64,000 bases of DNA, taken from positions 1,048,152-1,112,151 of the forward strand of contig CANNEK010000001.1 in the NCBI GenBank assembly GCA_947503625.1, in the 5' to 3' direction. The position numbers and the translations under genes are program-made. This DNA is from an uncultured Kordiimonas sp. (GTDB lineage: Bacteria > Pseudomonadota > Alphaproteobacteria > Sphingomonadales > Kordiimonadaceae). The notes beneath the pieces were generated by a model that was not told the origin of the DNA, ran no database searches, and saw nothing but the letters and a program-made list of their open reading frames with translations. Below are positions 3,197-18,283 of this stretch, piece after piece (the stretch's first letter is position 1; each line of letters starts with the position of its first letter).

Positions 3197-4411
3197 CTAC
3201 AGGGCGTCAAGTGCCTTCAAGCCTTTTTCAAAGACGTCATCGCCGGAACATAAAATGAGACGAATGCAGTCTGCCGAGGTCGGTCCGTATACATGCCCGG
3301 GAATTGAAACTATCTTGTTTTCTCCCAATAAATGTTCCGAAACCGTTGCGCCCGCCCCATTTTTATTCATGTGCCCACCAGCCAGGACAAGTCGCTGCGC
3401 AAGGTCTTCACACGACGGAAATGCAAACATGCCCCCCTGGGGACGCCGGGGCCATAAAAAGCCCTTATCCTCTGTCATAATGCAGGACAAGGCTTCCGCT
3501 CGCTGTTGAAGGGATTTCGAAACCCCATCCATCCACGTATCTGCCGCGTGATCCGAAATCATCCTGAGGGCAAACCGCTCAGACAGAATATTGACACCAA
3601 GATAGAGATAATCATGAAGTTTGGCAGCAAGATCGATCACTGCAGGCGGCGCACACAGCCAGCCAATTCTCAACCCTGGAACACCATATTTTTTGGAGAA
3701 GCTGTTTATCAGGATAGACCGGTTTTCAAGGCCGCGCACGCATCTGGCGGGAATATGGGGGCGTGAAAAGGCCATACTGTCATAGACCTCATCATGAATG
3801 ATCCAGAGATCATGCTTTTCAGCTACAGACGCCAACGCCCCGAAATCAGCCCGACTCGCAACATAACCACTGGGGTTTTCTGGCGAATTGACGATCAGTG
3901 CCTGCGCGGTTTCCGCGTGACCAGCCCAGTTGTTCAGCTCCGCATATTCATTGTCGCCGGGTTGACGGGTAATACACTTCGGCGTTCGCCCCAATGTTCG
4001 AACTGCCCGTTGATACAGCATGTAGGTAGGGTCTGTGATCAGGATTTCCTGCCCGGGGTCACTGGTTACCAGCGACGCCAGGCTGATGGCCTCCACGCCG
4101 CCGTGTGTGATCAGAATTTCAGTTTCTGGGTCAACATTGAGACCGTAGCGCCGTGAATAATAGTCCGCGATCGCTACCCGCAACTCCAGCATGCCGCGAT
4201 TTTTTTCATAAGACTTACTGGAATGCATGAACGCATCCCAGTTCAGGTCTTGAGCCTCAATCAGTGTCTTTGAACTTGGTGGCGGGCCAAAATCCGGCTC
4301 CCCAAATGCGAGATTGATGGCGCCGGGAATATCACGAGCCTTGGCCGCGGTTGCCTTGGTTGCATAACCGTCAAGCGCGAGCAGATCTTCACTCAAGGGA
4401 GGACTGGACAT
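3197..4411 (-). CDS. PLP-dependent class I/II aminotransferase, probably phosphonate pathway
   Basis: At 404 residues this matches fold-type I aspartate-aminotransferase-like enzymes. Visible motifs are NSPENPSG (175-182), the PLP-pyridine aspartate in HDEVYD (206-211), the Schiff-base lysine in NSFSKKYG (K240) and the substrate-carboxylate arginine in GLRIGW (R248). It is divergent from PEP mutase and phosphonopyruvate decarboxylase, which together yield phosphonoacetaldehyde or keep phosphonopyruvate. The likely job is therefore amination to 2-aminoethylphosphonate or phosphonoalanine. It is not the class V enzyme (PhnW) normally used for aminoethylphosphonate, so the substrate is inferred from context. 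An ordinary amino-acid transaminase remains possible. Confidence 0.75.
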   Translation of the reverse strand: MSSPPLSEDLLALDGYATKATAAKARDIPGAINLAFGEPDFGPPPSSKTLIEAQDLNWDAFMHSSKSYEKNRGMLELRVAIADYYSRRYGLNVDPETEILITHGGVEAISLASLVTSDPGQEILITDPTYMLYQRAVRTLGRTPKCITRQPGDNEYAELNNWAGHAETAQALIVNSPENPSGYVASRADFGALASVAEKHDLWIIHDEVYDSMAFSRPHIPARCVRGLENRSILINSFSKKYGVPGLRIGWLCAPPAVIDLAAKLHDYLYLGVNILSERFALRMISDHAADTWMDGVSKSLQQRAEALSCIMTEDKGFLWPRRPQGGMFAFPSCEDLAQRLVLAGGHMNKNGAGATVSEHLLGENKIVSIPGHVYGPTSADCIRLILCSGDDVFEKGLKALDAL

Positions 4412-4479
4412 ATAACTCCTTCTGGTACTGCATCAATCGCCGCCGGTTTACTTTCATTTCTGAGAGTGTTGCCAAAAAC

Positions 4480-4504
4480 ATGGTAATTTTGATGGTTTTA
4501 CCAT
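4480..4504. promoter_or_regulatory. Inverted repeat in the divergent phosphonate promoter region
   Basis: A perfect 7-base inverted repeat, ATGGTAA (4480-4486) and TTACCAT (4498-4504), is separated by 11 bases. A nested ATGGT-TTT-ACCAT repeat (4492-4504) shares the right arm. It lies in the 189-base gap between the divergent aminotransferase and PEP mutase genes. The TGGT...ACCA core resembles GntR-type operators. No GntR gene is in the window, so the binding protein is unknown. Confidence 0.4.
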
Positions 4505-4600
4505 TACATAGTTGTCATAGCTGCGTTAAATAGATCACAAATACATTGATGATAAATATGCTAAACACAACAGTTAGATCAATCAGGTGGCGACCATAAT

Positions 4601-5524
4601 TTGCAAAACTCATCCCCAGACAATGACGCAGACACTCGCGACACTGCGATGACTGTATCCAGGCAATTAAGGCAAATCCTGAACAGCGATGGCACGTCTT
4701 TCATTATGGAAGCACACAACGCCCTGGCTGCGCGCCTTGCCGAACAGGCAGGATTCAGTGCTCTCTGGGCATCAGGTTTGACTATCTCTGCAACAATGGG
4801 CCTTAGAGATGCCAATGAACTAACCTGGAACGAGGTACTAAACCTTGTGGAACCAGCAGCAGATGCAGTCGATATACCGGTACTGATGGATGCAGACAGT
4901 GGCTACGGCGACTTCAATATATTTGGCCGCTTTGTAGAAAAAGCAGCAGCAAGAGGTGTTGCCGGTGTCTGCGTGGAAGACAAGGAGTTTCCAAAACGAA
5001 ATTCTTTCGCCGACACTCAGCATACGCTTGCCAGCATTGAAGACTTTACTGCGAAAATCAGGGCTGCCAAAGACCGCCAGCCAAATTCAGATTTCTGTGT
5101 TATTGCCCGGACAGAAGCACTCGTTGCAGGTGCGGGACTGAGCGAAGCACTTGACAGAGCAGCCCGATATGAAGAAGCCGGTGCAGATGCTTTGTTTGTT
5201 CATTCAAAACAAAAAACAGCCTTCGAAATTGAAGCTTTTGTTGATCAGTGGCAAGGGTCTGTCCCCCTGGTGATTGCACCGACAACCTACGCATCTACAC
5301 CGACGGAAAACTTCGAGCGGCTCGGCATTTCCGCGATTATCTGGGCAAATCACGGGTTGCGTGCGGCTATCACAGGCATGCAATCTGTGTATCAAAATAT
5401 TTACGAGCAACGATCCGTGGCGTCAGTGGATAGCACTATTTCCAGTGTGGATGACATTCTGTCGCTAACGGAAACCGAAAAACTACTGTCTAGCGAAAAA
5501 AAATACGCCTCGATTAAACGCTAG
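4601..5524 (+). CDS. pepM: Phosphoenolpyruvate phosphomutase
   Basis: PEP mutase converts phosphoenolpyruvate to phosphonopyruvate and is the entry step of almost all C-P bond biosynthesis. This protein belongs to the isocitrate lyase/PEP mutase superfamily. It carries the diagnostic active-site pattern EDKxFPKxNSF (residues 126-136: EDKEFPKRNSF), which separates true mutases from lyases and phosphonopyruvate hydrolases. Also present are FIMEAHNALAARLAEQAGF near the N-terminus and the metal-binding MDADSGYGDF. The TTG at 4601 has an AGGTGG about 11 bases upstream; an ATG at 4649 is the alternative and would still keep the conserved core. The decarboxylase gene follows 2 bases after the stop, so the two are co-transcribed. 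Confidence 0.93.
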   Translation: MQNSSPDNDADTRDTAMTVSRQLRQILNSDGTSFIMEAHNALAARLAEQAGFSALWASGLTISATMGLRDANELTWNEVLNLVEPAADAVDIPVLMDADSGYGDFNIFGRFVEKAAARGVAGVCVEDKEFPKRNSFADTQHTLASIEDFTAKIRAAKDRQPNSDFCVIARTEALVAGAGLSEALDRAARYEEAGADALFVHSKQKTAFEIEAFVDQWQGSVPLVIAPTTYASTPTENFERLGISAIIWANHGLRAAITGMQSVYQNIYEQRSVASVDSTISSVDDILSLTETEKLLSSEKKYASIKR

Positions 5525-5526
5525 GG

Positions 5527-6687
5527 TTGGTGGACGCAGTGCTGGACGCCCGGAATTTCATTGATACGCTGAACCAACACGGGATTAATTTCTATTCAGG
5601 CGTGCCCTGTTCCTTTCTAAAGGGGCCAATGCAGATTTTGACGGAAAGCTCGTCTTATGTCGGTGCCGCCATCGAAACAGACGCTTTGGCGATGGCAGCC
5701 GGGGCTTGGTTGGCGGGCAAGAAGTCAGCCGTTTTTTGCCAAAACTCCGGTTTGGGTAATCTCATTAATCCGCTAAGTTCCTTGAATGCACCCTTCAAAA
5801 TACCCTGCCTACTTGTGATTGGGTGGCGCGCAAAACCGGGCCACAAAGACGAGCCACAACATCTGCTGATGGGGCAAACAACTCAACAAATACTTGGTCT
5901 GATGGACGTGAAGAGCTTTGAGCTGTCGGATGACCCAAATGAAGCTGAACAGACAGTCAATGCCGCGCTATCTCATATTGAGTCCACACAAAAGCCCGCA
6001 GCACTGCTGGTGGGTCCGGGAACCTTCTCCAAAGTTGAACAACTACGGATTGATAAAACGAACCGTGATGAAGATACCCATGCACATCATGAGCACCGCG
6101 ACTTGCGCACACTGGAAGGCAAGCTCCCATCACGCATGGATACGCTGCGCGCCCTGATGTCCAAAATGCCTCAAAACGCGGCGGTTGTCGCAACCACAGG
6201 AAAATGCGGGCGGGAACTATATTCAATTGCCGACAGGCCCCAGAATTTCTACATGGTGGGCTCCATGGGCTCTGCCAGTGCCATCGGGTTGGGCATCGCA
6301 CTCAACAGAAAGCAACTAGTAGTTGTGATAGATGGTGATGGTGCTGCCCTGATGCGATTAGGCACCATGGCAACAACGGGCCGCGCCAGGCCTGAAAACT
6401 ATGTTCATATAGTACTCGACAACCAGAGCCATGACTCAACAGGTGGGCAATCAACTGGCTCAGAATACGTTGATTTTTCAGGCGTTGCCGAGGCTTGTGG
6501 TTATGCAACCACTGTGAATTGTAACGATATTGAAGGCCTGACAACGGCGTTTCAAGCTGCCCTTGATGCAACAGGTCCACACTTCATTCGCGCCAAAATC
6601 AAAATCGGATCTTCCGCTAACCTCGGCAGACCTGCCATCCCACCGCACAGCGTTGCGCAGCGTTTTCAGGCGTTTCTCGCCAAGTAA
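5527..6687 (+). CDS. ppd: Phosphonopyruvate decarboxylase
   Basis: This thiamine-diphosphate enzyme decarboxylates phosphonopyruvate to phosphonoacetaldehyde, pulling the unfavourable PEP mutase reaction forward. The 386 residues match the fused two-domain Ppd (AepY) length. The N-terminal domain has SGVPCSFLKGP (24-34), the ThDP-activating glutamate in AAIETDALAMAAGAW (E50), and SGLGNLINPL. The C-terminal domain has the ThDP/magnesium motif GDG (270-272) through N299 in LDNQSHDSTGGQ. Start codons TTG 5527, GTG 5530 and GTG 5539 are all possible, and an AGGG sits at the end of pepM. It is directly downstream of pepM. The 117-base gap that follows ends in the strong Shine-Dalgarno of the radical SAM gene. 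Confidence 0.92.
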   Translation: MVDAVLDARNFIDTLNQHGINFYSGVPCSFLKGPMQILTESSSYVGAAIETDALAMAAGAWLAGKKSAVFCQNSGLGNLINPLSSLNAPFKIPCLLVIGWRAKPGHKDEPQHLLMGQTTQQILGLMDVKSFELSDDPNEAEQTVNAALSHIESTQKPAALLVGPGTFSKVEQLRIDKTNRDEDTHAHHEHRDLRTLEGKLPSRMDTLRALMSKMPQNAAVVATTGKCGRELYSIADRPQNFYMVGSMGSASAIGLGIALNRKQLVVVIDGDGAALMRLGTMATTGRARPENYVHIVLDNQSHDSTGGQSTGSEYVDFSGVAEACGYATTVNCNDIEGLTTAFQAALDATGPHFIRAKIKIGSSANLGRPAIPPHSVAQRFQAFLAK

Positions 6688-6803: not shown

Positions 6804-8705
6804 ATGCTCAGCGAGCAAGGCGAAAAAATCGCTCTGGTTAGTATGCCATGGTCCGCAGCGAAACTTCCTTCGATTCAGCTGGCAACACTTGACGCGGCGC
6901 TGCGCGGCCAAAATCTCGTGAGTGACCGACACGAACTCTATCTGGACTTCTGCGCCCAGATCACCCCCGCACTTTATACTTTGCTGGCTAACGGTGACGA
7001 GTTTCTGATCGAATGGCTTTTTTCTCGCGACTATTTTGGGAACGAAACCGGTAACTGGCTGAACAGCTACGAACAGGAACGCCAAAGAATTGCATTGCCC
7101 AATGGTGCTGATGACAGCGAAATAGTTGAAGGCCTCAAGATGGCCGCGCAGTATTTCCTCGACCAGTGTGAAGTCCAGATCGACTGGGGCCAATACGACA
7201 TTGTCGGTTTCTCGCTAAGCACTCAGCAACTGGGCGCATCGCTTGCAATGGCGCGCCGCGTCAAACGGAAACATCCTGCTGTTAAAATCGTTTTTGGCGG
7301 CAGCATGTGTACTGGCGAAGCAGGAGGAGCATTGCTTGCGCTGTGTCCTTATGTGGATGCGGTTGTCCGGACAGAAGGTGAGATCGTTTTCCCCGCCCTC
7401 ATACGTCGCTGGCGCAATCAGGAAAGCCTTGACGGACTGGAAGGGGTTAGCCACCGGAATAGTCAAGGGTCAGTTGTAAACGAGCCTGCAGGTGCACTTT
7501 TTCAAAATAACAGCCCACGCCCCTTTTTAAACTATGACCCCTATTTCGCCAAGATCGATCAATTTAGCTTGAGGAAAAGCCTCAACCCGATGCTGGCCTT
7601 CGAAAGTAGCCGCGGTTGCTGGTGGGGAGAAAAAAGCCAGTGCAGTTTCTGCGGCCTGCATGAGATCATGAAATACCGCCCCAAACAGCAGGACTTTGTT
7701 CTTGAAGAAATGGAGCACCTCGCCCAACGACACAATCACGGACGCTTTTACGCCGTAGACTTGATTGCGCCAAAACAGTTTTACCAGACTTTCTTTCCGG
7801 AGATAGAGCGCCGGGGTCACCAATGGCAACTATTCTATGAGATAAAGTCAAACGTAACCCGCAAGCAGCTTGCTGCCTTTGTCGACGGTAGCGGAGATGT
7901 TATTCAGCCCGGCATTGAAAGCCTGCAAGACTCGTCCTTGAAGCGCATGCATAAAGGCGCTCACGTGCTGCAGAATATCCAGCTAATGAAATGGTGCCGG
8001 GAAATGGGCGTCACGGTATACTGGAATTACCTGATGAGCTTACCCGGAGAAGACGCAGCGGACTATGACGGCGCCGCGGAAAAGGTGCGTAAACTGGTAC
8101 ATCTTGAGCCACCGTCTACAATCCGGGATGTGCTGATAACTCGATATGCGCCATATCACAAGACGCCTGAAAAATATGACATCCAAAACCTCAGGCCCCA
8201 CAAACACTATGATCTGGTTTTCCCCGCACCCGCATCGGTGATTGGTAACTTCGCTTATCTGTTTGAAGCAGAGTGGCCAACTCAGGATAGTGCGCAGCAA
8301 TATACAGCAGACCTGAAGAGCGCTTGCAGGGATTGGAAACGTGCCGAAAAACATAAGCCTCGGCTTGATGCGTTCCGGCAAAGCGATGGCAGTCTCAGCA
8401 TCATTGATACTCGCTCGGGAGTGGAGACCCTTCACACCTTGTCCCCGGAAGAGGCCGCGCTTTATTTGTTGCTGGACGAAAAACAACTGGATTACCGACT
8501 AGCGCCAGAACTGGAGGAAAAAGACCCTTTAGCGTTGAAGGCAATATCTCATAGCGGCGATTTAACCAAGAAAATCGACGAATGGGAACAGGCTGGCCTG
8601 GTTTTGCGCGAAGGTGATCAGGTTCTTGCACTGGCGGTAAAGCGCTGGCGCGACGAATCCATCATTTTACCAAGAAGGAAAACGCATATTACGCGCGCTG
8701 CATGA
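6804..8705 (+). CDS. B12-binding radical SAM protein, RiPP maturation family
   Basis: The 633-residue protein has an N-terminal Rossmann/cobalamin-binding-like region (about 100-230, including YDIVGFSLSTQQLGASLAMA and KIVFGGSMCTGE). A radical SAM domain follows, with the cluster cysteines spaced CWWGEKSQCSFC (C272, C280, C283). This Cx7Cx2C spacing within SRGCWWG...CSFCGL is the signature of 'RiPP maturation radical SAM protein 1' enzymes rather than the standard Cx3Cx2C. The usual B12 histidine (DxHxxG) is not evident, so cobalamin use is uncertain. The last 170 residues resemble a peptide-recognition or winged-helix tail. Related enzymes modify precursor peptides, often by C-methylation at unactivated carbons. 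GGGGGA precedes the ATG. A small ORF with its own strong ribosome site follows 44 bases downstream. Confidence 0.85.
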   Translation: MLSEQGEKIALVSMPWSAAKLPSIQLATLDAALRGQNLVSDRHELYLDFCAQITPALYTLLANGDEFLIEWLFSRDYFGNETGNWLNSYEQERQRIALPNGADDSEIVEGLKMAAQYFLDQCEVQIDWGQYDIVGFSLSTQQLGASLAMARRVKRKHPAVKIVFGGSMCTGEAGGALLALCPYVDAVVRTEGEIVFPALIRRWRNQESLDGLEGVSHRNSQGSVVNEPAGALFQNNSPRPFLNYDPYFAKIDQFSLRKSLNPMLAFESSRGCWWGEKSQCSFCGLHEIMKYRPKQQDFVLEEMEHLAQRHNHGRFYAVDLIAPKQFYQTFFPEIERRGHQWQLFYEIKSNVTRKQLAAFVDGSGDVIQPGIESLQDSSLKRMHKGAHVLQNIQLMKWCREMGVTVYWNYLMSLPGEDAADYDGAAEKVRKLVHLEPPSTIRDVLITRYAPYHKTPEKYDIQNLRPHKHYDLVFPAPASVIGNFAYLFEAEWPTQDSAQQYTADLKSACRDWKRAEKHKPRLDAFRQSDGSLSIIDTRSGVETLHTLSPEEAALYLLLDEKQLDYRLAPELEEKDPLALKAISHSGDLTKKIDEWEQAGLVLREGDQVLALAVKRWRDESIILPRRKTHITRAA

Positions 8706-8749
8706 TGAACGCGTATTCCACCCCATTATATATATGAAAGGATACTAAA

Positions 8750-9019
8750 ATGGATGCTTTATACACCGCACTGGCTCACGATAAAGAGCATGTTGACGGC
8801 TACTACAAGAAGATCGGAGAGTTTTACAACTCACTGACACACCATGAGAAGAAAGTCTTTCATTCCAATGCTCAGCAAGCCAAAGCCAGTTCGCCAGATG
8901 TTGCTGCACTGTTCAACGACCCGGCCCAGAAAGCACAGCTGGAAACATATCTGAAAGATAAGGCCGGCTTGGAAGATGTACCCCAGGACGAAGACATGAT
9001 GGATACAGCTTTTTTCTAG
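8750..9019 (+). CDS. Small acidic protein, candidate RiPP precursor or partner
   Basis: This 89-residue protein is unrecognised. It is charged and mostly helical in character (DKEHVDGYYKKIGEFYNSL, QKAQLETYLKDKAGL). It ends in a short, different tail, DVPQDEDMMDTAFF, with an acidic patch before Thr-Ala-Phe-Phe. GAAAGGA lies 7 bases before the ATG, so translation should be strong. It sits directly behind the radical SAM gene and overlaps the end of the protease gene tail-to-tail by 4 bases. Size, position and a leader-like helical body suit a RiPP precursor. Against this, the C-terminus has only one Thr, no Cys and no Ser, so little is available for a dehydratase unless modification occurs elsewhere. 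A non-core recognition partner is the main alternative. Confidence 0.6.
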   Translation: MDALYTALAHDKEHVDGYYKKIGEFYNSLTHHEKKVFHSNAQQAKASSPDVAALFNDPAQKAQLETYLKDKAGLEDVPQDEDMMDTAFF

Positions 9020-10260
9020 GTACCAAGCTCGGGTTTGCCCTGACCTTGATACAGCGCACTCATGCCAAGTGACTGGCACATGGCATTGAGTGTCTGCTGC
9101 GCGCGCTCAGTCCGTTGCAGATTTCTGGGCATGCCGATGTAATTCTTGTCGGTCGCGAGCCTCGCCGCCAGCACCGCGGTAACGACCGCAACAGAATCAG
9201 ACGTACCAACCTGAGACGCATAAAGTGCTTTCCCGTCAGGTGACGGAACGGTGCTGGCTATGGCTGTGCCCGGGGCTATACACGTTAGCCCCTCACCAAA
9301 ATTGCTAACCATCGCCAGATATGTGCCCTGGGTTCCCTTTTTCAGGTTGGTTACAGGCTCAAAAACCTCATTGGTTTCCATCGTCGGCCCGTGAAAGTTT
9401 TTTTGACCAAGGGCTCCCACAGCAGCGACCCCGGGCACCGCAGCAGGATATCTAACTGGTTGCTCTCCGGTGTTCCCGGCAGCTGCGATACAAAATGCAC
9501 CCTTTTGCCTTGCGTATTCAATTGCTTCGGCCTGAGGCCGGGAGGGTGTATCGCTGCTCAAACTGAGATTGATCAAGTCGACGCCGACATCACCTGCAAG
9601 GAAACGAATTGCCTCTGCAACGTCATTTGCATTCGCACCGTGCGCATCCTTTGGGTAAACCCTCACAGATGAGATCGCCGCTCCGGGGGCAATACCAGCC
9701 GGATGTGTTTGATCGCTCGGGCGCGCGCCAATAAGCCCGGCCATCATTGTACCATGATAGGATACATCACGACCGTCAGCTGTTTTCACACCATCAATGA
9801 TAGCACCAAGGTCTTCAACGTGAGAAAGGTAAGGGTGAGGGCCAACACCTGTGTCTACAAGGCCAATCTTAATACCTTGCCCTCGGCCAGGTTCATACTT
9901 TTCAATACCAAGTGCTTTATGCCACCAGCAAATGTTGCTTTCAAACTCGAATGGCGGGCAATCGATTTGAAGTGTGCCTCCCCATTTTGTGCTTGCACCA
10001 TACCAGTTGCCTGAACCAGACATGGCAGAGGCATAAACAGGCGTTTCTTTATTAGGCTCATAGCTTAAAACACAAGCCCCATCATCAGCTGAAACTCCGT
10101 TATGCACGTGCAACTGCCCGCTTTTTTTGTTTCTGACAACCAGAAAAACCAAAGCACCGGCAAGAGGGTGACCTGCAGATGTCACAATCACTGGCACAGT
10201 TTGTTGATTGGGCGAGGTTATTGATTTGCGGAGTTCGCCCAAGAGGTGAGAAAAAATCAT
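9016..10260 (-). CDS. Subtilisin-like (S8) serine protease without obvious signal peptide
   Basis: The 414-residue protein has a complete S8 catalytic set: Asp in KIGLVDTGVG (D136), His in YHGTMMAG (H169), the oxyanion Asn in AAAGNTGE (N263) and Ser in VGTSDSVAVV (S354). The serine motif GTSDSVA differs from the common GTSMAAP/GTSMATP. The first 100 residues look like an immunoglobulin-like or carboxypeptidase-regulatory domain (VPVIVTSAGHPLAGALVFLVV). I see no secretion signal, so the enzyme is probably cytosolic, as expected for a peptide-maturing protease rather than a nutritional one. It lies downstream of the propeller sensor kinase (28-base gap, same strand) and is convergent with the small protein at 8750. 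Cleavage of that protein is an inference. Confidence 0.85.
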   Translation of the reverse strand: MIFSHLLGELRKSITSPNQQTVPVIVTSAGHPLAGALVFLVVRNKKSGQLHVHNGVSADDGACVLSYEPNKETPVYASAMSGSGNWYGASTKWGGTLQIDCPPFEFESNICWWHKALGIEKYEPGRGQGIKIGLVDTGVGPHPYLSHVEDLGAIIDGVKTADGRDVSYHGTMMAGLIGARPSDQTHPAGIAPGAAISSVRVYPKDAHGANANDVAEAIRFLAGDVGVDLINLSLSSDTPSRPQAEAIEYARQKGAFCIAAAGNTGEQPVRYPAAVPGVAAVGALGQKNFHGPTMETNEVFEPVTNLKKGTQGTYLAMVSNFGEGLTCIAPGTAIASTVPSPDGKALYASQVGTSDSVAVVTAVLAARLATDKNYIGMPRNLQRTERAQQTLNAMCQSLGMSALYQGQGKPELGT

Positions 10261-10288
10261 ACGCTATACCCGTCACTCATGTCCAAAC

Positions 10289-13200
10289 TCACTTCCTCGG
10301 TATTGTTATGGTGAAAACGGAGCCACCTTCTTCAGGCCGTCGGTACTCCACCGTACCCGATAAAGCACCAACAACGAGATTGTGTACAATGTGCAGGCCC
10401 AGCCCGGTATTTCCCTGACCGCGCCGCGTAGTAAAAAAGGGTTCAAATATCTTTTCCTGATTGATGGCAGAGATACCTTTGCCGTTGTCAGCGACAGTGA
10501 CGACGGTAGCATCGGAAGTCTGGGCAGCGTCAATCCTGATATCACCTGACTCGCCAGAGCCAAAAGCATGCGTAACTGCATTTGTAACCAGATTGGTGAC
10601 AACCTGGCTCAAAGCGCCGGCATTGATCAACAACCTGATCTTTTCGTCCCCGGTTACGCTCGCTACATGCCCTTTTTCCATGAGTAGTGGTTTAACGCTA
10701 ATCATCACATCGCGCAGATATGGCACCAGCTGAATGTCAGTTATTTGCTGACTCGTCTGATCCGCCGAAACCAACTTGAAACTCTGGATCATGTCTGCGG
10801 CTTTTTGGGCGTTATTAAGTGTCAACCGCCCAAGGTCATGGCTTAATTCCAAAAACCGCTCGAGGTCCGGTTTGGTGATTTGTTCGCCAGCCAGTTTATT
10901 CCGGATTTTACCGACCTCGCTTTCTATCTGTGATGCGCCGCTTACCACAAGGCCAATAGGAGTATTAACCTCATGTGCAACGCCTGCTACCAGCCCCCCG
11001 AGCGCCGCAAGCTTCTCCGATTGAATGAGCTTGCTTTGCGTCTCTTTAAGTTCAGACATCGTGCGTTCAATTTTCACATTTCGCTGTGCAAGTTCTGACC
11101 TCTGCCGTTCAATTTTTTCTGTACGCTCCACGACCTGCTCTTCCAGCTTTCGCTGGCTTGCTTTCAAGACCGCCAGGCGCCCCTGATACAGGGCAAAAAG
11201 AGCTAAAAAGCCAACAGCTATGGCAAGAAACTGGAACCAGATAGTCTGGTAAAACGCCGGGAGAACCTCAAGGCGAATTTCGCTAGGGTACGTACTCGAA
11301 TTTCCGTTCCTGTCAAAAACGTTGATGTAAAGGGTATAGCCGCCGGGCGGAAGATTAGTATACGTCGCTGAGCGACGTGACGAATCTGTGTAAGTCCACT
11401 CTTTGTCAAACCCTTCCAGCCGGTGCGCATACGTATACGAGGCTGCATCAATTGGGGTCAAACTTGCATATTCGACCGTGAAATCCCTGTCATCTGGTGT
11501 CAACTCAATGTCCGCTGCATCTCGAAGGTCAGATGCGGCCCAGTCGAATATCTCTCTTCCTCCGACCACAAGTCGGGTAACTTCCGGCGCTTTAACTGTT
11601 TTGCGATGATCAAAAATCGACGGAGATAATATAGTCAGCCGCCTCAAGCCAGCGTAAACAAGCTCGCCAGATTCCGTCACATGGCCACCACGATCAGGAA
11701 CATTTACCGGACCATTCATATTGTCACCGAAAAAGACAGTCTTTCTTGTCTCTGGATCAAAAGCCAGAACACCCTCAGCCGTCGAAAACCACATCCGCCC
11801 CGTGCCGTCCTCAAGAACAGTGTTACTTGCCAAGCTACGATAGGGTGTTCCATCAAAAGGAAAAACAAACTCGGGCTCGGACGCGAAAGGTTCAGACGTG
11901 TAGGATATCTGTTCGCCGGCAATCCAAAGACGTCCTTTTCGGTCAATGGTCATGGCCCGTGCACTGCGCATGCGATCCTGACCTTCCTCTGCAGACATGC
12001 TGCGCACCCTGGATAGTTGACGTCGGTCAGGAGACAGGCGAAAAACGCCAGACCTTGTACCGATCCAAATGGTCTGGTCGGTATTTTCAAGCATCACCAG
12101 AACGGGGCCAAGATCCGCGGGAGATACGCCAGAAATCCCGATCGCTGCACTCTCCAGCGTTAACGTATGGGGGTCGATCGTGAACACGCCGCGCGAAAAT
12201 TCAGACAGCCATATAGTACCCGCCTGGTCTTCGAATATTGACACAAGATTCCAACCCTCAGTTCCCGGGACCATACGGGCACTTTCCTGTTCGAGATCGT
12301 AGATGTAAAGGCCCCGGCCAACAGTCGGCAGCCAGATACGCCGGTCACTTCCCTGAATAGCAGAAATCACCCAGAAAGGTTGGTTGTCCCCTGGGACTAG
12401 GTCTAGTGATTTCTCGAGTATCAGTGCATCGCCATCGCGATAAAAAATCGATGGGCGTTTGTCACGGCTGGACAAAAGCCAACGACCGTCATCTAACTCC
12501 AGCAGCATCCTGATATTGCTGTTTGATGCGAAAATCCCGGGCGCACCAGGGTCACTCTGGTATACAGAGACACCTACATTGCCGGGATCTACAACATTTA
12601 GCCCCGCACCCCAGGTGGGCACCCATATCAGTCCATCATCATCCTGTGTAACAGCAAATGTATTATTGGAACTCAAGCTACTGGCACGACCTGACACATG
12701 TTGCACCCTGCTGCTGGATTGATTTTGCCACTCGAGGACATCTATACCTCTATCTCGGTAACCGACCCAGATATCGCCGTTCCGGTCTTCCATCAGCTTC
12801 GTGACGAAACCGGGGGTCAGTTGATAGGGCGCTGCGCCGGGTTTAATAAGCAGCAACTCGGGAGAAGAGGTTTCCTTGCGTATCAGGCCAATTCCATCGG
12901 TTCCCATCCAAAGAGTACCATCGCGTTCAAACTGGATCACTGTCACATGATCAAGCGGGGCATCCGTGTCAACACCATAAACTTCTTCATAGCTTGTGAA
13001 GGTTGCTTTTACGGCATTGTAGCGTTGCAAATCACCACCAAGGCAAGCGACCCACAAGCTGCCTTCCAAATCGACGTCTGCAGCCAGGCACAGGTTGCTG
13101 CTCAGGCTTTCAGGATTAAGCGCATCATGCTTGTGACGCCTGAGCGTCTCCATATCCGGCATAAGCCGGACCATGCCATCTCCGAACACCATGAACACCA

Positions 13201-13690
13201 TGCTGCCGTCCGCCAACTCTTCAATAAAAAGAGTTTGTCCCGCAAAGTAATCGGCAGGGTCCTCAGGGTTATTGCCATACCTGCGGAAAGTGTGATCGCT
13301 TGGGTCATACATTGTGACACCATTTGACTCGGTGCCAACCCAAACTCTGTCTTTTTTGTCGACAACAACGCTTCTCAATCTGTTGCCGCTCAGTGAATTA
13401 AGGTTCTCTGAATCATGAATAAATTGCTTGAAACGATAACCGTCATATCGAAACAGGCCTGCGTATGTCGCGACCCAAACGAAGCCCTTTGAGTCCCGGG
13501 CAACACCTGCAATTTCTTGCGACAGAAGGCCTTGCTCCGGTCCAAAATGATGAAACTTGAGCTGAGGAGAGATCGAATTCTCCTGAGCATGAAGACCAAC
13601 TGGAACAATAGAAAACAGCGCCCCCAACAACAGGCAAACAGATTTATATCGCAGCTTGAAACTTTCAGGACTTCTCATTTTCCCCGCCAT
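10289..13690 (-). CDS. Two-component sensor kinase with beta-propeller, Y_Y_Y and histidine kinase domains
   Basis: The layout of this 1133-residue protein is: signal peptide (ending near GLHAQE, about residue 36); some 700 residues of Reg_prop repeats seen as recurring VWVGTxxGLxxY/IWLxxxGxGLxxYD units; a Y_Y_Y domain (SYTYAHRLEGFDKEWTYTDS); a membrane helix (IWFQFLAIAVGFLALFALYQ); a coiled coil; HisKA with GGLVAGVAHEVNTPIG (phospho-acceptor H906); and HATPase_c ending TGLGLHIVHN. It resembles the sensor half of the one-protein hybrids used for polysaccharide sensing but has no receiver or DNA-binding domain. It would signal from a periplasmic ligand to an unlinked regulator or to the hybrid kinase at 15743. 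A second in-frame ATG lies four codons in. It is divergent from the APH/HopA1 pair across only 45 bases. Confidence 0.9.
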   Translation of the reverse strand: MAGKMRSPESFKLRYKSVCLLLGALFSIVPVGLHAQENSISPQLKFHHFGPEQGLLSQEIAGVARDSKGFVWVATYAGLFRYDGYRFKQFIHDSENLNSLSGNRLRSVVVDKKDRVWVGTESNGVTMYDPSDHTFRRYGNNPEDPADYFAGQTLFIEELADGSMVFMVFGDGMVRLMPDMETLRRHKHDALNPESLSSNLCLAADVDLEGSLWVACLGGDLQRYNAVKATFTSYEEVYGVDTDAPLDHVTVIQFERDGTLWMGTDGIGLIRKETSSPELLLIKPGAAPYQLTPGFVTKLMEDRNGDIWVGYRDRGIDVLEWQNQSSSRVQHVSGRASSLSSNNTFAVTQDDDGLIWVPTWGAGLNVVDPGNVGVSVYQSDPGAPGIFASNSNIRMLLELDDGRWLLSSRDKRPSIFYRDGDALILEKSLDLVPGDNQPFWVISAIQGSDRRIWLPTVGRGLYIYDLEQESARMVPGTEGWNLVSIFEDQAGTIWLSEFSRGVFTIDPHTLTLESAAIGISGVSPADLGPVLVMLENTDQTIWIGTRSGVFRLSPDRRQLSRVRSMSAEEGQDRMRSARAMTIDRKGRLWIAGEQISYTSEPFASEPEFVFPFDGTPYRSLASNTVLEDGTGRMWFSTAEGVLAFDPETRKTVFFGDNMNGPVNVPDRGGHVTESGELVYAGLRRLTILSPSIFDHRKTVKAPEVTRLVVGGREIFDWAASDLRDAADIELTPDDRDFTVEYASLTPIDAASYTYAHRLEGFDKEWTYTDSSRRSATYTNLPPGGYTLYINVFDRNGNSSTYPSEIRLEVLPAFYQTIWFQFLAIAVGFLALFALYQGRLAVLKASQRKLEEQVVERTEKIERQRSELAQRNVKIERTMSELKETQSKLIQSEKLAALGGLVAGVAHEVNTPIGLVVSGASQIESEVGKIRNKLAGEQITKPDLERFLELSHDLGRLTLNNAQKAADMIQSFKLVSADQTSQQITDIQLVPYLRDVMISVKPLLMEKGHVASVTGDEKIRLLINAGALSQVVTNLVTNAVTHAFGSGESGDIRIDAAQTSDATVVTVADNGKGISAINQEKIFEPFFTTRRGQGNTGLGLHIVHNLVVGALSGTVEYRRPEEGGSVFTITIPRK

Positions 13691-13735
13691 GATATAACCC
13701 TGTTCAAGTATTTAACCTATTGACCGCGCGGCAGA

Positions 13736-14794
13736 ATGGCCACAAAAAAACAGCTTTCAGAAGAAATATCCGCCGTTTTGCGGCAGGCTGGTCTCATCAC
13801 AAAAGGCGAAAGCTGCAGCTGCGACTTTATTCCATCGCGACAATTGGCTGTGCATTGTGTCACAGACGGTGGAGTTCATTTCTTTGTAAAACAGTTAAAC
13901 GGCAATCACTCATTTGGTGATAAATGGATAGAACAGGTTTTCAGCAGCTCGCAATTCAAATACTCGCAACATCGGCCTAGAATCCACTTCAACGATCGTG
14001 GTTGGTTAATCAGCGATTTTTGTAAGCGCACTGAAACCCTGAAAAAAGTTCCCAGCGACATGCTGAGCAGCACGCTGGCAAGAACAATGGGAATGGCATT
14101 GGCATCACTGCATTCGCTGGGCACAGCGCCATTGAAAAACAGCCCAAAGCTCGGGCTTGCCAACCCTCAAAGCAATGTTCGGGCGATGCCCCCCCTAAGC
14201 CTGTCCAGCTACGCAGAAATGCCGGGACTGGACCGGGACATTTACGTGAGATACAGCCAGGGATGCGCCGAGGGGATTTCGATTCTTTCAGACCAACTAA
14301 GCTATAACAGCCCTATTCACGGGGACCTGCAGGGCGGCAACATTCTAATAACGCTTTCCGAAAACAATGCCTTTCATATTGTGGACTGGGAGCGCGCGAG
14401 CCCTGGTGATCCCTGCTGGGACCTCGGACATCTGCTCGCAGCTCTGCTACAGAGGTGGATCAGAACAATCAACGACCTGACGCCACCCCTTGATGAAATC
14501 CTGTCACTTAGACAGGGAACTTGGCCCCCGCAGGCGAGCTGGTACACACAGTTGCTAAACACCTATATTACCGAATTGCCAGAACTCACTCGCCATGAAG
14601 TCAGCGCAGCCAAAATAAGCCGTATTGCCGGCCATACAATTTTGGAGCGTTGCCGTAACATTCTGTACGTACGCGGCATATATTCTGGCCGCGATGTTCT
14701 CATGCTCGCCATTGCAGAAAAATTAGTCAACCAACCAGAACAGACTTTACTGTCTCTTCTGCCCGGGCTGAAACTTGGGGAGGCAGAGTTATGA
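13736..14794 (+). CDS. APH-fold phosphotransferase, putative RiPP Ser/Thr kinase subunit
   Basis: This 352-residue protein has the aminoglycoside-phosphotransferase (APH) kinase fold. Brenner's catalytic motif is intact, HGDLQGGN (195-202, catalytic D197), and the metal-binding aspartate lies in IVDWERASPGDPCWDLGH (D217). Its stop overlaps the start of a HopA1-family gene (ATGA at 14791-14794). That gene pairing is the split dehydratase of thioviridamide-type (TvaC/TvaD) and class V lanthipeptide (LxmK/LxmY) pathways, where the APH protein phosphorylates Ser/Thr and the HopA1 protein eliminates phosphate. Function is inferred from this pairing; an APH kinase alone could act on many small molecules. 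It is divergent from the sensor kinase, and both may share regulation. Confidence 0.82.
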   Translation: MATKKQLSEEISAVLRQAGLITKGESCSCDFIPSRQLAVHCVTDGGVHFFVKQLNGNHSFGDKWIEQVFSSSQFKYSQHRPRIHFNDRGWLISDFCKRTETLKKVPSDMLSSTLARTMGMALASLHSLGTAPLKNSPKLGLANPQSNVRAMPPLSLSSYAEMPGLDRDIYVRYSQGCAEGISILSDQLSYNSPIHGDLQGGNILITLSENNAFHIVDWERASPGDPCWDLGHLLAALLQRWIRTINDLTPPLDEILSLRQGTWPPQASWYTQLLNTYITELPELTRHEVSAAKISRIAGHTILERCRNILYVRGIYSGRDVLMLAIAEKLVNQPEQTLLSLLPGLKLGEAEL

Positions 14795-15738
14795 AAACTA
14801 GCGACCTGATATCCAAGATCAGTAAAGAGGTATGGTATGAGCCTGGTTCTGGTTGGGTACACGACGGAATTCGCCCAGGGCAATCAGATGAAATAATTAC
14901 CAACCTCTCGTATTTTCTCTATCAGAGCTATTACCTTGGTCTGCGCAAGGTAACGACTTCTGCTAATAAATTTTATGGCAAAATGACGGCTATAGCTGAA
15001 CGCGAAGACAAACAGTTTGCATCCGAACTTGAGCAAATGCTAGCTGGACAATATTATAAAAGTACCGGTTGGAGAATTGTTTCACGGCAAGGAACTTCTG
15101 CGATCATCGAACGAAATGGTATTGTACTCTCGGCAACCTCAGGAGAATGGCTTCCCGAAACAGCTTCCAAATCAATGGTAACGGTTGATATGCCGACCGC
15201 GCGCCGTTACGCCTCGCCAGGGTTTTTCAGTGCGTGTGGTACTCTAGCGCCACCCGACAAAACTGAACGGCTCGACCGGCTTTATATCAATGTTGCTCAG
15301 AACGACGCAGCTACTCTTTTTGTAAAAGTGTTGGAGCTGGCATCAGCTATGGAGACCGCAATAACTGCAAAGGTTGCCAATACAGCCAATGCATATGATA
15401 GATGCGACACATTGGTGGCGTATCTTCCGCGTAGATTTTTTCAACAAAACCTCGCTGAATTTGTTGACAGGCTTAACCTGGCGAACCTGAAAGTGCGCCC
15501 GACATCACCCGCTTTTACCAAACAACTGAAAAAAGGAGTGTCCTGGGCCCAGGACCCTCTATCAGACGGATGCGGACCCCTGGGCTTCGGCATGCATCGC
15601 TGCAGGATCATTGCGCAAGGGATGGAAAAGGCCTCCGCGAAAGGCCATCAGGAAATCGAAGAAAGTATTTTGCAAGAATGGCAAATATCGGGATTGGATG
15701 TCGACGCTCCACATCTATCACCAAGTCTCCCAGCTTAA
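14791..15738 (+). CDS. HopA1-family protein, putative phospho-Ser/Thr lyase subunit
   Basis: The 315 residues show the landmarks of the HopA1 family as I know it: LYQSYYLG near residue 45; RLYINVAQNDAATLFVKVLE (about 163-183); a central Y-D-R-C-D-T-L-V-A-Y-L-P strand; and the C-terminal block RPTSPAFTKQLKKGVSWAQD...GFGMHRCRIIAQ (about 232-275). Named after a Pseudomonas type III effector, the family is also the lyase partner of APH-type kinases in thioamitide and class V lanthipeptide biosynthesis. There it removes phosphate to leave dehydroalanine or dehydrobutyrine. The 4-base overlap with the kinase gene implies translational coupling. No type III secretion genes are present, which argues against an effector. 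It converges with the next gene, 4 bases away. Confidence 0.82.
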   Translation: MKTSDLISKISKEVWYEPGSGWVHDGIRPGQSDEIITNLSYFLYQSYYLGLRKVTTSANKFYGKMTAIAEREDKQFASELEQMLAGQYYKSTGWRIVSRQGTSAIIERNGIVLSATSGEWLPETASKSMVTVDMPTARRYASPGFFSACGTLAPPDKTERLDRLYINVAQNDAATLFVKVLELASAMETAITAKVANTANAYDRCDTLVAYLPRRFFQQNLAEFVDRLNLANLKVRPTSPAFTKQLKKGVSWAQDPLSDGCGPLGFGMHRCRIIAQGMEKASAKGHQEIEESILQEWQISGLDVDAPHLSPSLPA

Positions 15739-15742
15739 TCGG

Positions 15743-18283
15743 TTACTTGTTCCACTCAACCGTTTCAAAAAAACGGCAAGCCGTTTCGCATTGACCCATC
15801 AATTGTGGCGTCAACTTTTCTATCTCACGCCAGTTCTCTTCGCGCACATGGTATTCGATCGCCTGTGCTGCCTCCGCAAGATCATCTGCCCCAATCACAC
15901 CACAACTACCGGCGATGGAATGGGCGGAATAACGGACCCTTTCCGGATCCTTGCGGGCAACAGATATTTCCAACTCACGGATAAACCGCGGAATATCGCG
16001 CATAAACATATCGACCAGCACTCGTGATCGCGCGTTCAGGTCACCATATATTTCCAACAGTTTAGTCAGGTCGATTCCGGCCTTTTCAGCCTCCTCAACA
16101 ATCGAGACTTTACCCGCCTTTGATTTCAGGATCGGGTAATCTTCGAGAATCAGGGCTTCATCATAATTTGCCTCCACACGCGGGCAGTCCTTGCTTAGCC
16201 ATTTATCAAGTGTTTTGGCGAGTGTGGCGATATCGACCGGCTTGCTAACATAGTCATCCATGCCAGCCTCTCGGCTCAATTCAATATCTTCAGGCAGGAA
16301 ACTTGCCGACAAAGCAACAACGGGCAATCTGTCAGGCCTGCCCTCTTCATCAGAGCGTAGTTTTCGCACAACCTCAAAGCCTTCAATGTCGGGCATGAAA
16401 CAGTCTATAAATGCGAGGTGAAATGCACCGATGTCTTCGGTTAGAGATCTGATTGCATCCCTGCCGTTTTCAACAATCCGGACAGATACTGACAAGTGTT
16501 CAAGCATTCGCCTGAGAACAAACTGGTTGGTTCGCGAGTCATCTGCGATCAACACCTTTGCGCCTGGAAAACGTATCCGTGACCAGGCAGAAGCAGGTTT
16601 GGGAGCATCGGAAACCGAGCCCTCGTTCACCATTTTGACGCTACTTTCCTGTCTGTCCACAAGACCAGTCACGCCAGAAACCAAGGCGTCAGCCCTGATC
16701 ACTTTCATAATAATGTGGTTAATCTCATAGCCTCGGAGACGGGAAATTAGAGAGCGACTTGATCTTCTAATCATAACACCGACCGGAATATCCGATAATC
16801 GTTCTCGTTGCCTTATTTCGCGAAGCCAGTGTATGCAATGATGATGGTGAACGGTTTCATCAATGAGAATGGCGTCAAAAGGGTGTCCTTTCAGCATCGA
16901 CGTAAGCAACTGCTCGCCCGCCTCCGGTGCGTCGCTTACATGGATCACGTCTGCTTTTTGGCGCAGCAATGTATCGCGAACCGAACGCATGGCAACATTC
17001 GCATCACCCAGCAACATTACACGGCTTCCCCGAAGTAGCTCGGTCTTGTCAGGTTGTTCTCCAGAACAAGAAACTTCAACGGTGAACCTAAAAGTTGAAC
17101 CATTTCCAGCTTCACTTTCGGCGTTGATACTACCGTTCATGAGTTCCACCAGACGCTTGCTGATCGCAAGCCCCAGCCCAGTACCGCCATATTTCCGGCT
17201 GGTATCAGCGCTAGCCTGCTCGAAAGGTGAAAACAATCGGGATTTTTGTTCTTCGTCCATTCCAATGCCGGTATCCGACACCTCAAAACAAAGTTCATCG
17301 GTCGTATCGGTTTTTTCCCTGTACGTGACACTGATAAGAACATGTCCAACGGTGGTAAACTTTATTGCGTTGCCAACCAAGTTGAGCAGAACCTGGCTAA
17401 CTCGTTTGGGGTCGCATTCCAGTATATCCGGAACTGAGTGGTCAATTGACACAACCAATTCCACATCTTTCAACCAGGCCCTGGACGCCAATTGATCGAC
17501 AGCACCATGAACCAAATCTGAGACACTAACTCTTTTGAGGCTGATTTCGAGTTTACCAGCATCTATCTTTGAAAAATCCAGAATGTCATCAATTATTTCA
17601 AGAAGATAACCTGCGCTATCCTGGCAAATCTTAATAAGAGAATTCTGATCTTCGTCCGGCTTGGTATTGGAAAGAAGCTCAAGTGTACCGAGAATCCCGT
17701 GCATCGGTGTGCGAATTTCGTGGCTGACTGATGCAAGAAATAATGATCTGGCTGCAGCTTTGGCTTCAACGACTTGACGCAGCCTTTCGCTGCGTTCGAG
17801 GTCTTGCATATCAGCGTAGTTTCGAAGAGCACCAATAACGGTGGTGATCAGGCGTTCTTGCGTCAGATCAGTTTTAGATCTGTAATCGTTAATATCATAT
17901 TTGAGGACGACCTCAGCTTCCGGCGCCTGCCCCGGCTGGCCGGTCCGCAATACAATACGGACGCGCTGGTTGTTCATTTCATTTCTGATTTTCTCGACAA
18001 GCTTCAAGCCCGAATCGTCACTCTCCATGACTACGTCAAGCAAGATGACAGCGATATCCGGCATTTCTGCAAGATACTCTTCGGCCTCTTCCGCTGAGTG
18101 AGCGCTCAGGAAATCAATTTGTGCACCACGAAAGCCGATACTGTGCAGGTTGAGTTTTGTAAGAGTATGAACCTCTGGTTCATCGTCTACAATCAAGACC
18201 TTCCAGTTAGGCGTCGGCATGCTTTCAGGCGCAGTAGGCGCTTCTTGTTCCTCTGCTGCGGCGAACAAATAATTATCCTGCAT
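15743..18283 (-). CDS. Hybrid histidine kinase with N-terminal receiver, two C-terminal receivers and HPt
   Basis: The domain order over 846 residues is: an N-terminal receiver (KVLIVDDEPEVHTL, phospho-Asp in VILLDVVM, about 28-150); HisKA with ASVSHEIRTPMHG (H188); HATPase_c (GGTGLGLAISKRL); a degenerate receiver-like segment (SRVMLLGDANVAM); a canonical receiver (KVLIADDSRTNQFVLRRML); and a C-terminal HPt domain with HSIAGSCGVIGADDL. There is no membrane segment, so it is a cytosolic phosphorelay hub fed by another protein through the N-terminal receiver. The separate sensor kinase at 10289, which has no receiver of its own, is a plausible donor, though this is inference. It is convergent with the HopA1 gene. 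Confidence 0.92.
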   Translation of the reverse strand: MQDNYLFAAAEEQEAPTAPESMPTPNWKVLIVDDEPEVHTLTKLNLHSIGFRGAQIDFLSAHSAEEAEEYLAEMPDIAVILLDVVMESDDSGLKLVEKIRNEMNNQRVRIVLRTGQPGQAPEAEVVLKYDINDYRSKTDLTQERLITTVIGALRNYADMQDLERSERLRQVVEAKAAARSLFLASVSHEIRTPMHGILGTLELLSNTKPDEDQNSLIKICQDSAGYLLEIIDDILDFSKIDAGKLEISLKRVSVSDLVHGAVDQLASRAWLKDVELVVSIDHSVPDILECDPKRVSQVLLNLVGNAIKFTTVGHVLISVTYREKTDTTDELCFEVSDTGIGMDEEQKSRLFSPFEQASADTSRKYGGTGLGLAISKRLVELMNGSINAESEAGNGSTFRFTVEVSCSGEQPDKTELLRGSRVMLLGDANVAMRSVRDTLLRQKADVIHVSDAPEAGEQLLTSMLKGHPFDAILIDETVHHHHCIHWLREIRQRERLSDIPVGVMIRRSSRSLISRLRGYEINHIIMKVIRADALVSGVTGLVDRQESSVKMVNEGSVSDAPKPASAWSRIRFPGAKVLIADDSRTNQFVLRRMLEHLSVSVRIVENGRDAIRSLTEDIGAFHLAFIDCFMPDIEGFEVVRKLRSDEEGRPDRLPVVALSASFLPEDIELSREAGMDDYVSKPVDIATLAKTLDKWLSKDCPRVEANYDEALILEDYPILKSKAGKVSIVEEAEKAGIDLTKLLEIYGDLNARSRVLVDMFMRDIPRFIRELEISVARKDPERVRYSAHSIAGSCGVIGADDLAEAAQAIEYHVREENWREIEKLTPQLMGQCETACRFFETVEWNK

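What the first reader, a model, noticed from the sequence alone, without database searches (positions are those of the whole stretch)
6804..15738. Candidate new RiPP locus combining a B12-type radical SAM enzyme, S8 protease and APH/HopA1 dehydratase pair
Within 9 kb are a RiPP-maturation radical SAM protein, a strongly translated 89-residue ORF, a protease with no secretion signal, and an APH/HopA1 gene pair overlapping by 4 bases. APH/HopA1 pairs are the Ser/Thr dehydratase of thioamitide and class V lanthipeptide pathways, described mainly from actinomycetes. Their association with this radical SAM type in a marine proteobacterium is not one I know. No transporter, YcaO or lanthipeptide cyclase is present, so the product class would be unusual. 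Whether all six genes act together is inference: they lie in three transcription units.
Basis: partly seen in the sequence, partly recalled or inferred. Interest (0 to 1): 0.85.

Follow-up and report, generated by a model that had tools for sequence, protein, structure and literature searches.

The report
Seven-gene peptide-modification cassette in Kordiimonas
A marine bacterium carries a compact set of seven genes, kept together in five species although the genes around it differ, that looks built to alter and cut a small conserved protein and to signal about it; I did not find this combination described.

Summary
The unit is seven genes (window 6804-18283), not six: B12 radical-SAM enzyme, 89-aa ORF, S8 protease, propeller histidine kinase, APH, HopA1, hybrid kinase. 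It has the same order and orientations in 5 of 29 family genomes (two genera); orthologue-grade matches of the radical-SAM enzyme, ORF89, protease and HopA1 fall in these same five. Flanks share almost nothing and synonymous sites are near saturation, so the neighbourhood is not accidental. Catalytic residues of APH, HopA1 and protease are intact. ORF89 is the most constrained of six proteins measured, has no cysteine, and its tail holds one dehydratable residue, Ser/Thr86. A distant genome (G737) separately clusters APH, HopA1, this protease type, LanC and a same-family radical-SAM enzyme. Best reading: a dedicated cysteine-free RiPP-like pathway on ORF89 with its own kinase relay, more likely signal or cofactor than antibiotic. 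Not shown: that APH/HopA1 or the radical-SAM enzyme act on ORF89, the product, or its role. Against: elsewhere each half occurs without the other, APH/HopA1 diverge far faster than ORF89, and one study set aside antiSMASH TIGR03975 clusters as likely false positives. New variant of a known kind.

The parts
6804..8705 (+). B12-dependent radical SAM enzyme, TIGR03975 (rSAM_ocin_1); C-terminal winged-helix-like domain about residues 520-613
   Evidence: 529.4 bits vs cut-off 281.85; CX7CX2C (C272, C280, C283) invariant in 5 of 5; C-terminal domain pLDDT about 75-89 in an otherwise poor model
8750..9019 (+). ORF89, putative precursor; no Cys; residue 86 is the only Ser/Thr in the last 17 residues, Ser or Thr in 5 of 5
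   Evidence: Matches in 5 of 29 family genomes; alignment; dN/dS about 0.03 for G008-G014; residue counts
9016..10260 (-). S8 (subtilisin-like) protease with an extra N-terminal region of about 120 aa; no signal peptide by eye
   Evidence: Pfam PF00082; D136, H169, S354 (taken as the triad) invariant in 8 of 8
10289..13690 (-). Reg_prop/Y_Y_Y propeller sensor histidine kinase, same strand as S8 with a 28-base gap
   Evidence: Pfam; 44-69% identity in the 4 other loci
13736..14794 (+). APH-like kinase, distant relative of LxmK
   Evidence: PF01636 46.3 bits; LxmK model 59.8 bits, far below its cut-off of 315; HGD, N202, D217 invariant in 5 of 5
14791..15738 (+). HopA1-family phospho-Ser/Thr lyase homologue
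   Evidence: PF17914, 88.4 bits; R163, K194, R204, Y211 invariant in 11 of 11 aligned
15743..18283 (-). Hybrid kinase: three receiver stretches, HisKA, HATPase, C-terminal Hpt; no DNA-binding domain among its Pfam matches
   Evidence: Pfam; 47-75% identity in the 4 other loci

Best explanation
A dedicated seven-gene peptide-modification cassette. Shown: the seven genes form one conserved unit, the kinase, lyase and protease keep their catalytic residues, and a strongly conserved cysteine-free 89-aa protein lies beside the radical-SAM gene. Inferred: ORF89 is a precursor; the winged-helix-like C-terminal domain of the radical-SAM enzyme binds its helical N-terminal part and the enzyme C-methylates the tail; APH phosphorylates Ser/Thr86 and HopA1 eliminates the phosphate, leaving Dha/Dhb; the cytoplasmic S8 protease releases the modified tail; product or pathway is sensed or controlled by the propeller kinase feeding a phosphorelay through the hybrid kinase. 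Without Cys in ORF89 no lanthionine can form within it. The conserved tail, the absence of exporter and immunity genes in the cassette and the two kinases favour a signal or cofactor over an antibiotic.
For: Same order and orientations in five species; orthologue-grade rSAM, ORF89, S8 and HopA1 in the same 5 of 29 genomes; flanking ORFs of 100 aa or more share one 126-aa stretch at 39% (cut at E 1e-8, 35% identity, 80 aa) while synonymous differences against the window are 0.75-0.96 per site. ORF89: dN/dS about 0.03 in the one clearly unsaturated pair, one Ser/Thr in the tail and 0 Cys in 5 of 5. HopA1 R163/K194/R204/Y211 follow the spacing of CaoY R187/K219/R229/Y236, of which R187 and K219 were studied by mutagenesis (PMC9486802, passages). 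APH core and S8 triad intact. Separate recurrence: G737 has S8, APH, HopA1, LanC and a TIGR03975 enzyme (545.6 bits) within 10 kb on one strand. The S8 type lies beside APH-HopA1-LanC also in G203, G791, G792, G795, G796 and, cut by a contig end, G794.
Against: No substrate, modification or product was shown. APH and HopA1 are 36-41% identical to the window's in same-genus loci where ORF89 is 72-75%, odd for enzymes of so constant a substrate. Elsewhere the halves occur apart: 7 of 7 other class TIGR03975 loci match no other cassette protein; of 11 HopA1 loci examined outside the family 1 has rSAM, and 4 plasmid HopA1 loci viewed, of 13 records matched, show no annotated radical SAM gene. S8 relatives occur without HopA1. 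One study dropped antiSMASH TIGR03975 clusters as likely false positives (PMC9426513, one passage). ORF89 and rSAM models are poor (mean pLDDT 52.4 and 52.6). G008's HopA1 lies in two frames. No exporter in the cassette.
Confidence: 0.55

Rival explanations
1. Two linked modules: the radical-SAM enzyme acts on ORF89, while APH/HopA1 with S8 and the kinases act on another peptide or protein encoded elsewhere.
For: APH/HopA1 diverge much faster than ORF89 and rSAM; S8 with APH-HopA1 and a kinase occurs without rSAM or ORF89 in G203 and relatives; there and in G737 repetitive Thr/Ser-rich ORFs lie beside the pair.
Against: Gaps in the cassette (44, 28, 45 and 4 bases) leave no room between genes for a second precursor; in the 29 family genomes the orthologous halves were not seen apart; G737 joins rSAM with APH/HopA1 separately.
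Confidence: 0.25
2. ORF89 is not a precursor but a partner protein (adaptor or inhibitor) of the radical-SAM enzyme or protease, and the cassette modifies an unknown target under kinase control.
For: Invariant residues run along all of ORF89, not only an N-terminal leader; no known leader family matched.
Against: Predicted helices followed by a short low-confidence tail look like leader plus core, though the model is poor; PqqA/MftA-type precursors are also well conserved (recalled).
Confidence: 0.15
3. A mobile conflict or defence island rather than a metabolite pathway.
For: Patchy presence (4 of 19 in the genus) and unrelated flanks.
Against: Only weak PADLOC matches among the seven proteins (hybrid kinase E 1.8e-4 and 0.0068, S8 E 0.0027); no tRNA gene in the window; strong purifying selection.
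Confidence: 0.05

Closest known systems
Class V lanthipeptide / thioamitide dehydratases (LanK-LanY: CaoK-CaoY, LxmK-LxmY; TvaC-TvaD)
   Same: Adjacent APH-like kinase and HopA1-family lyase with matching catalytic residues (published residues from passages)
   Different: APH scores 59.8 bits against an LxmK cut-off of 315; no Cys in ORF89; no Cys decarboxylase, YcaO or LanC matched in the cassette; adds B12 rSAM, S8 and two kinases
TIGR03975 rSAM_ocin_1 loci
   Same: Full-length family member above cut-off
   Different: 7 of 7 other class loci examined, two cut by contig ends, match none of the other six proteins; one has a Nif11-like ORF by eye, ORF89 is not of that type
APH-HopA1-LanC-S8 loci of G203, G791-796 and G737 (found here)
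   Same: Same S8 type (37% and 35% over about 400 residues), APH, HopA1; G737 also TIGR03975
   Different: LanC present; repetitive Thr/Ser-rich ORFs instead of ORF89; rSAM seen in G737 only
PQQ and mycofactocin pathways (recalled)
   Same: Short conserved precursor, radical SAM enzyme, conserved core
   Different: Dehydratase pair and histidine kinases; different precursor

Membership tests
RiPP pathway | Short precursor gene next to modifying enzymes, conserved as coding | tested here: met
   ORF89 44 bases after rSAM, kept in 5 species under purifying selection; that it is a precursor is inferred
RiPP pathway | Precursor is post-translationally modified and cleaved | not testable with these tools
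   Needs mass spectrometry
Class V lanthipeptide | APH and HopA1 pair with catalytic residues | tested here: met
Class V lanthipeptide | Cys in the core for (Me)Lan or AviMeCys | tested here: not met
   0 Cys in ORF89 in 5 of 5
Class V lanthipeptide | LxmK equivalog score of the kinase | tested here: not met
   59.8 bits vs cut-off 315
Thioamitide | YcaO and Cys decarboxylase in the locus | tested here: not met
   Not matched by Pfam or NCBIfam in the seven proteins or the three genes to their left
TIGR03975 radical SAM | Full-length match above curated cut-off | tested here: met
   529.4 bits vs 281.85
TIGR03975 radical SAM | C-methylation of a peptide | not testable with these tools
   Only the family name says so; one study treats the antiSMASH rule's clusters as likely false positives
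Known anti-phage system | Convincing PADLOC model match | tested here: not met
   Only weak matches

The most novel reading that the evidence does not exclude
A new RiPP class: a cysteine-free conserved precursor on which a B12 radical-SAM enzyme and a kinase/lyase dehydratase both act near a single Ser/Thr at the C-terminus, giving a small methylated dehydroamino peptide that a cytoplasmic subtilase releases and that the pathway's own propeller kinase and phosphorelay read.
Probability: 0.25. Interest if true: 0.85.

Novelty: new variant of a known kind. Interest (0 to 1): 0.62.

Why it matters
It would place the class V-type dehydratase where no thioether can form within the precursor, in a pathway with a conserved rather than variable tail and its own sensor kinases, pointing to a signal or cofactor made by RiPP chemistry in marine alphaproteobacteria. 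The single tail Ser/Thr gives a sharp, cheap prediction (one dehydration, minus 18 Da). It would also offer TIGR03975 enzymes, whose use as a RiPP marker has been doubted, a concrete substrate to test.

Tried and rejected
Accidental neighbourhood: rejected on conserved order with unrelated flanks. Phosphonate genes upstream as part of the unit: rejected, no match in the roughly 20-kb stretches of the 4 other cassette loci. ORF89 outside the family: 1 of 385 class genomes, the own one; only weak Pfam and PDB matches. Fold search with the poor rSAM model: general B12 radical-SAM structures (TokK, OxsB, CysS, MgmA, TsrM); the winged-helix domain was not searched on its own by fold and had no Pfam match. 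Promoter-like and terminator-like sites were about as many as in shuffles (13 against a mean of 11.6; 17 against 13.6), so transcription units are read from gene direction only. Plasmid searches with S8: 8 and 5 records, all with S8 genes of Rhizobiaceae or Variovorax; the three viewed lie in unrelated contexts. Literature: in the open-licence PMC library; I saw listings, and passages of five papers, and met no description of this combination; subscription papers and preprints are not held.
Full report
Setting. The window lies in a 4.07-Mb genome. Named relatives of its radical-SAM gene are an uncultured Kordiimonas sp., two MAGs and Eilatimonas milleporae DSM 25217; the Kordiimonas contig has the length of G017's contig 4, and G017 is listed as same genus. 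I therefore call the window Kordiimonas; the genome itself is unnamed.

The genes. Between 6804 and 18283 lie, packed: a TIGR03975 B12 radical-SAM enzyme; ORF89; an S8 protease on the other strand whose 3' end overlaps ORF89 by 4 bases; a propeller (Reg_prop, Y_Y_Y) histidine kinase; an APH-like kinase and a HopA1-family protein overlapping by 4 bases; and a hybrid kinase with three receiver stretches and a C-terminal Hpt. The gaps are 44, 28, 45 and 4 bases, too short for another precursor gene between them; an ORF overlapping a gene was not tested for.

Is it a unit? In 29 family genomes (25 of them at least 90% complete) HopA1 is found in 5, ORF89 in 5, S8 at E below 1e-100 in 5, with three further weak matches at E 7e-13 to 3e-11 in G026, G014 (second place) and G003, and the radical-SAM enzyme at 57% identity or more in 5, with G007 at 32% and three very weak others. 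They are the same five each time: G000, G008, G014, G017 and, in another genus, G021. In all five the seven genes have the same order and relative orientation. ORFs of 100 aa or more in the flanks (12-45 kb per side; window left flank 6.8 kb) share one 126-aa stretch at 39% identity, with hits under 35% identity or 80 aa not counted. Synonymous differences against the window's genes are 0.75-0.96 per site, near saturation. An intact core between unrelated flanks at this divergence argues for selection on the set, or for its transfer in one piece; either way for a functional unit. In G008 HopA1 lies in two frames, a sequencing error or decay; it was left out of rates and alignments.

Rates. In the one clearly unsaturated pair (G008-G014) dN/dS is about 0.03 for ORF89, 0.07 rSAM, 0.09 propeller kinase, 0.10 S8, 0.12 hybrid kinase and 0.19 APH (quotients of the values; HopA1 not measurable). 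ORF89 is the most constrained of the six. APH and HopA1 are only 36-41% identical to the window's within the genus, which I cannot explain well and which counts against one constant substrate.

Active sites. HopA1 R163, K194, R204 and Y211 are invariant in 11 of 11 sequences aligned. Their spacing (31, 10, 7) fits CaoY R187, K219, R229, Y236 (32, 10, 7); R187 and K219 were studied by mutagenesis there, and the abstract says critical residues were identified (PMC9486802, passages). The APH core HGD, N202 and D217 is invariant in 5 of 5. Protease residues D136, H169 and S354, which I take as the S8 triad, are invariant in 8 of 8. The rSAM cysteine motif is CX7CX2C.

Precursor. ORF89 has no Cys in 5 of 5; residues 28 and 86 (window numbering) are Ser or Thr in all five; in the last 17 residues residue 86 is the only one. 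The models are weak (mean pLDDT 52.4 for ORF89; 52.6 for rSAM). Only the rSAM C-terminal domain is fairly confident: three strands, four helices, then short strands. I read this as a winged-helix domain like the RiPP recognition element, by topology and from recall; no Pfam profile matched it.

Wider context. In 385 class genomes TIGR03975 exceeds E 1e-60 in 8 including the own one; none of the other 7 loci, two cut by contig ends, matches any other cassette protein. HopA1 is found in 2 of 385 class genomes and 4 of 349 phylum genomes, own genome included, and in 9 of 82 genomes of G203's family. Of 11 HopA1 loci examined outside the window's family, G523 left aside, 7 have an S8 homologue nearby (G203, G791, G792, G794 in part, G795, G796, G737), one of these a TIGR03975 enzyme too (G737), three have neither (G515, G610, G746), and G793 is cut inside HopA1; G794 and G792 are also short. 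Four plasmid loci viewed of 13 records matched show no annotated radical SAM gene, one has an S8 gene of low similarity. G737 matters most: S8, a Thr/Ser-rich frame without Cys (112 T, 34 S in 488 codons), APH, HopA1, LanC-like and TIGR03975 (545.6 bits) follow on one strand within 10 kb. A profile of the protease finds, in the 82 genomes of G203's family, six matches at E below 1e-160, all beside HopA1, one partial at a contig end (G794), and three at E about 1e-56 to 1e-59 in genomes without HopA1. Three of the six were in the profile, so their scores are partly built in.

Literature. The pair has orthologues in many contexts, with distant ones in Proteobacteria (PMC7794033, passages). A cytoplasmic serine protease, ElxP, acts in another RiPP pathway (PMC10885120, passages). 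A sponge-microbiome study excluded antiSMASH TIGR03975 clusters as likely false positives (PMC9426513, one passage), which weakens any argument from the TIGR03975 name. Six searches of the held library listed nothing that describes this combination.

Verdict. The set is real and conserved (about 0.97). That it modifies ORF89 as a RiPP is the best reading (0.55 for the whole statement); dehydration of residue 86, methylation, protease release and the signalling role are inferences.

Noticed in passing
window 3197-6687: Phosphonate genes directly upstream: PLP enzyme nearest GntC (below its cut-off), PEP mutase and phosphonopyruvate decarboxylase above theirs; TRAP transporter genes at 79-1548. 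Not part of the conserved cassette.
   Followed up: partly
L041 5942-6550 (G203): 202-aa ORF of YPQTISF-type repeats (21 TIS motifs) before an APH-HopA1 fusion, LanC, S8, solute-binding protein and GAF histidine kinase; the repeat ORF matches in 7 genomes, some loci cut by contig ends.
   Followed up: partly
L096 6305-7771 (G737): Thr/Ser/Pro-rich repetitive frame without Cys between S8 and APH, a candidate dehydratase substrate.
   Followed up: partly
L100 7410-7652: 80-aa ORF with three CVSVxFTAGC-like repeats before APH, HopA1 and LanC on an Aliiroseovarius plasmid; looks like a multi-core lanthipeptide precursor.
   Followed up: no
L101 1240-2241: Four nearly identical tandem 65-aa ORFs upstream of a HopA1-family gene and a bacteriocin/lantibiotic-type exporter on a Nostoc plasmid.
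   Followed up: no
L103 7868-12814: Deinococcus plasmid with a phosphotransferase, a LanC-family protein whose N-terminal part matches HopA1, and an S8 peptidase only 27% identical to the window's.
   Followed up: partly
L030 5334-6280 (G008): HopA1 lies in two reading frames; sequencing error or decay.
   Followed up: no
L033 1638-2063 (Eilatimonas): A lone receiver-domain protein next to the hybrid kinase, a possible relay partner.
   Followed up: no
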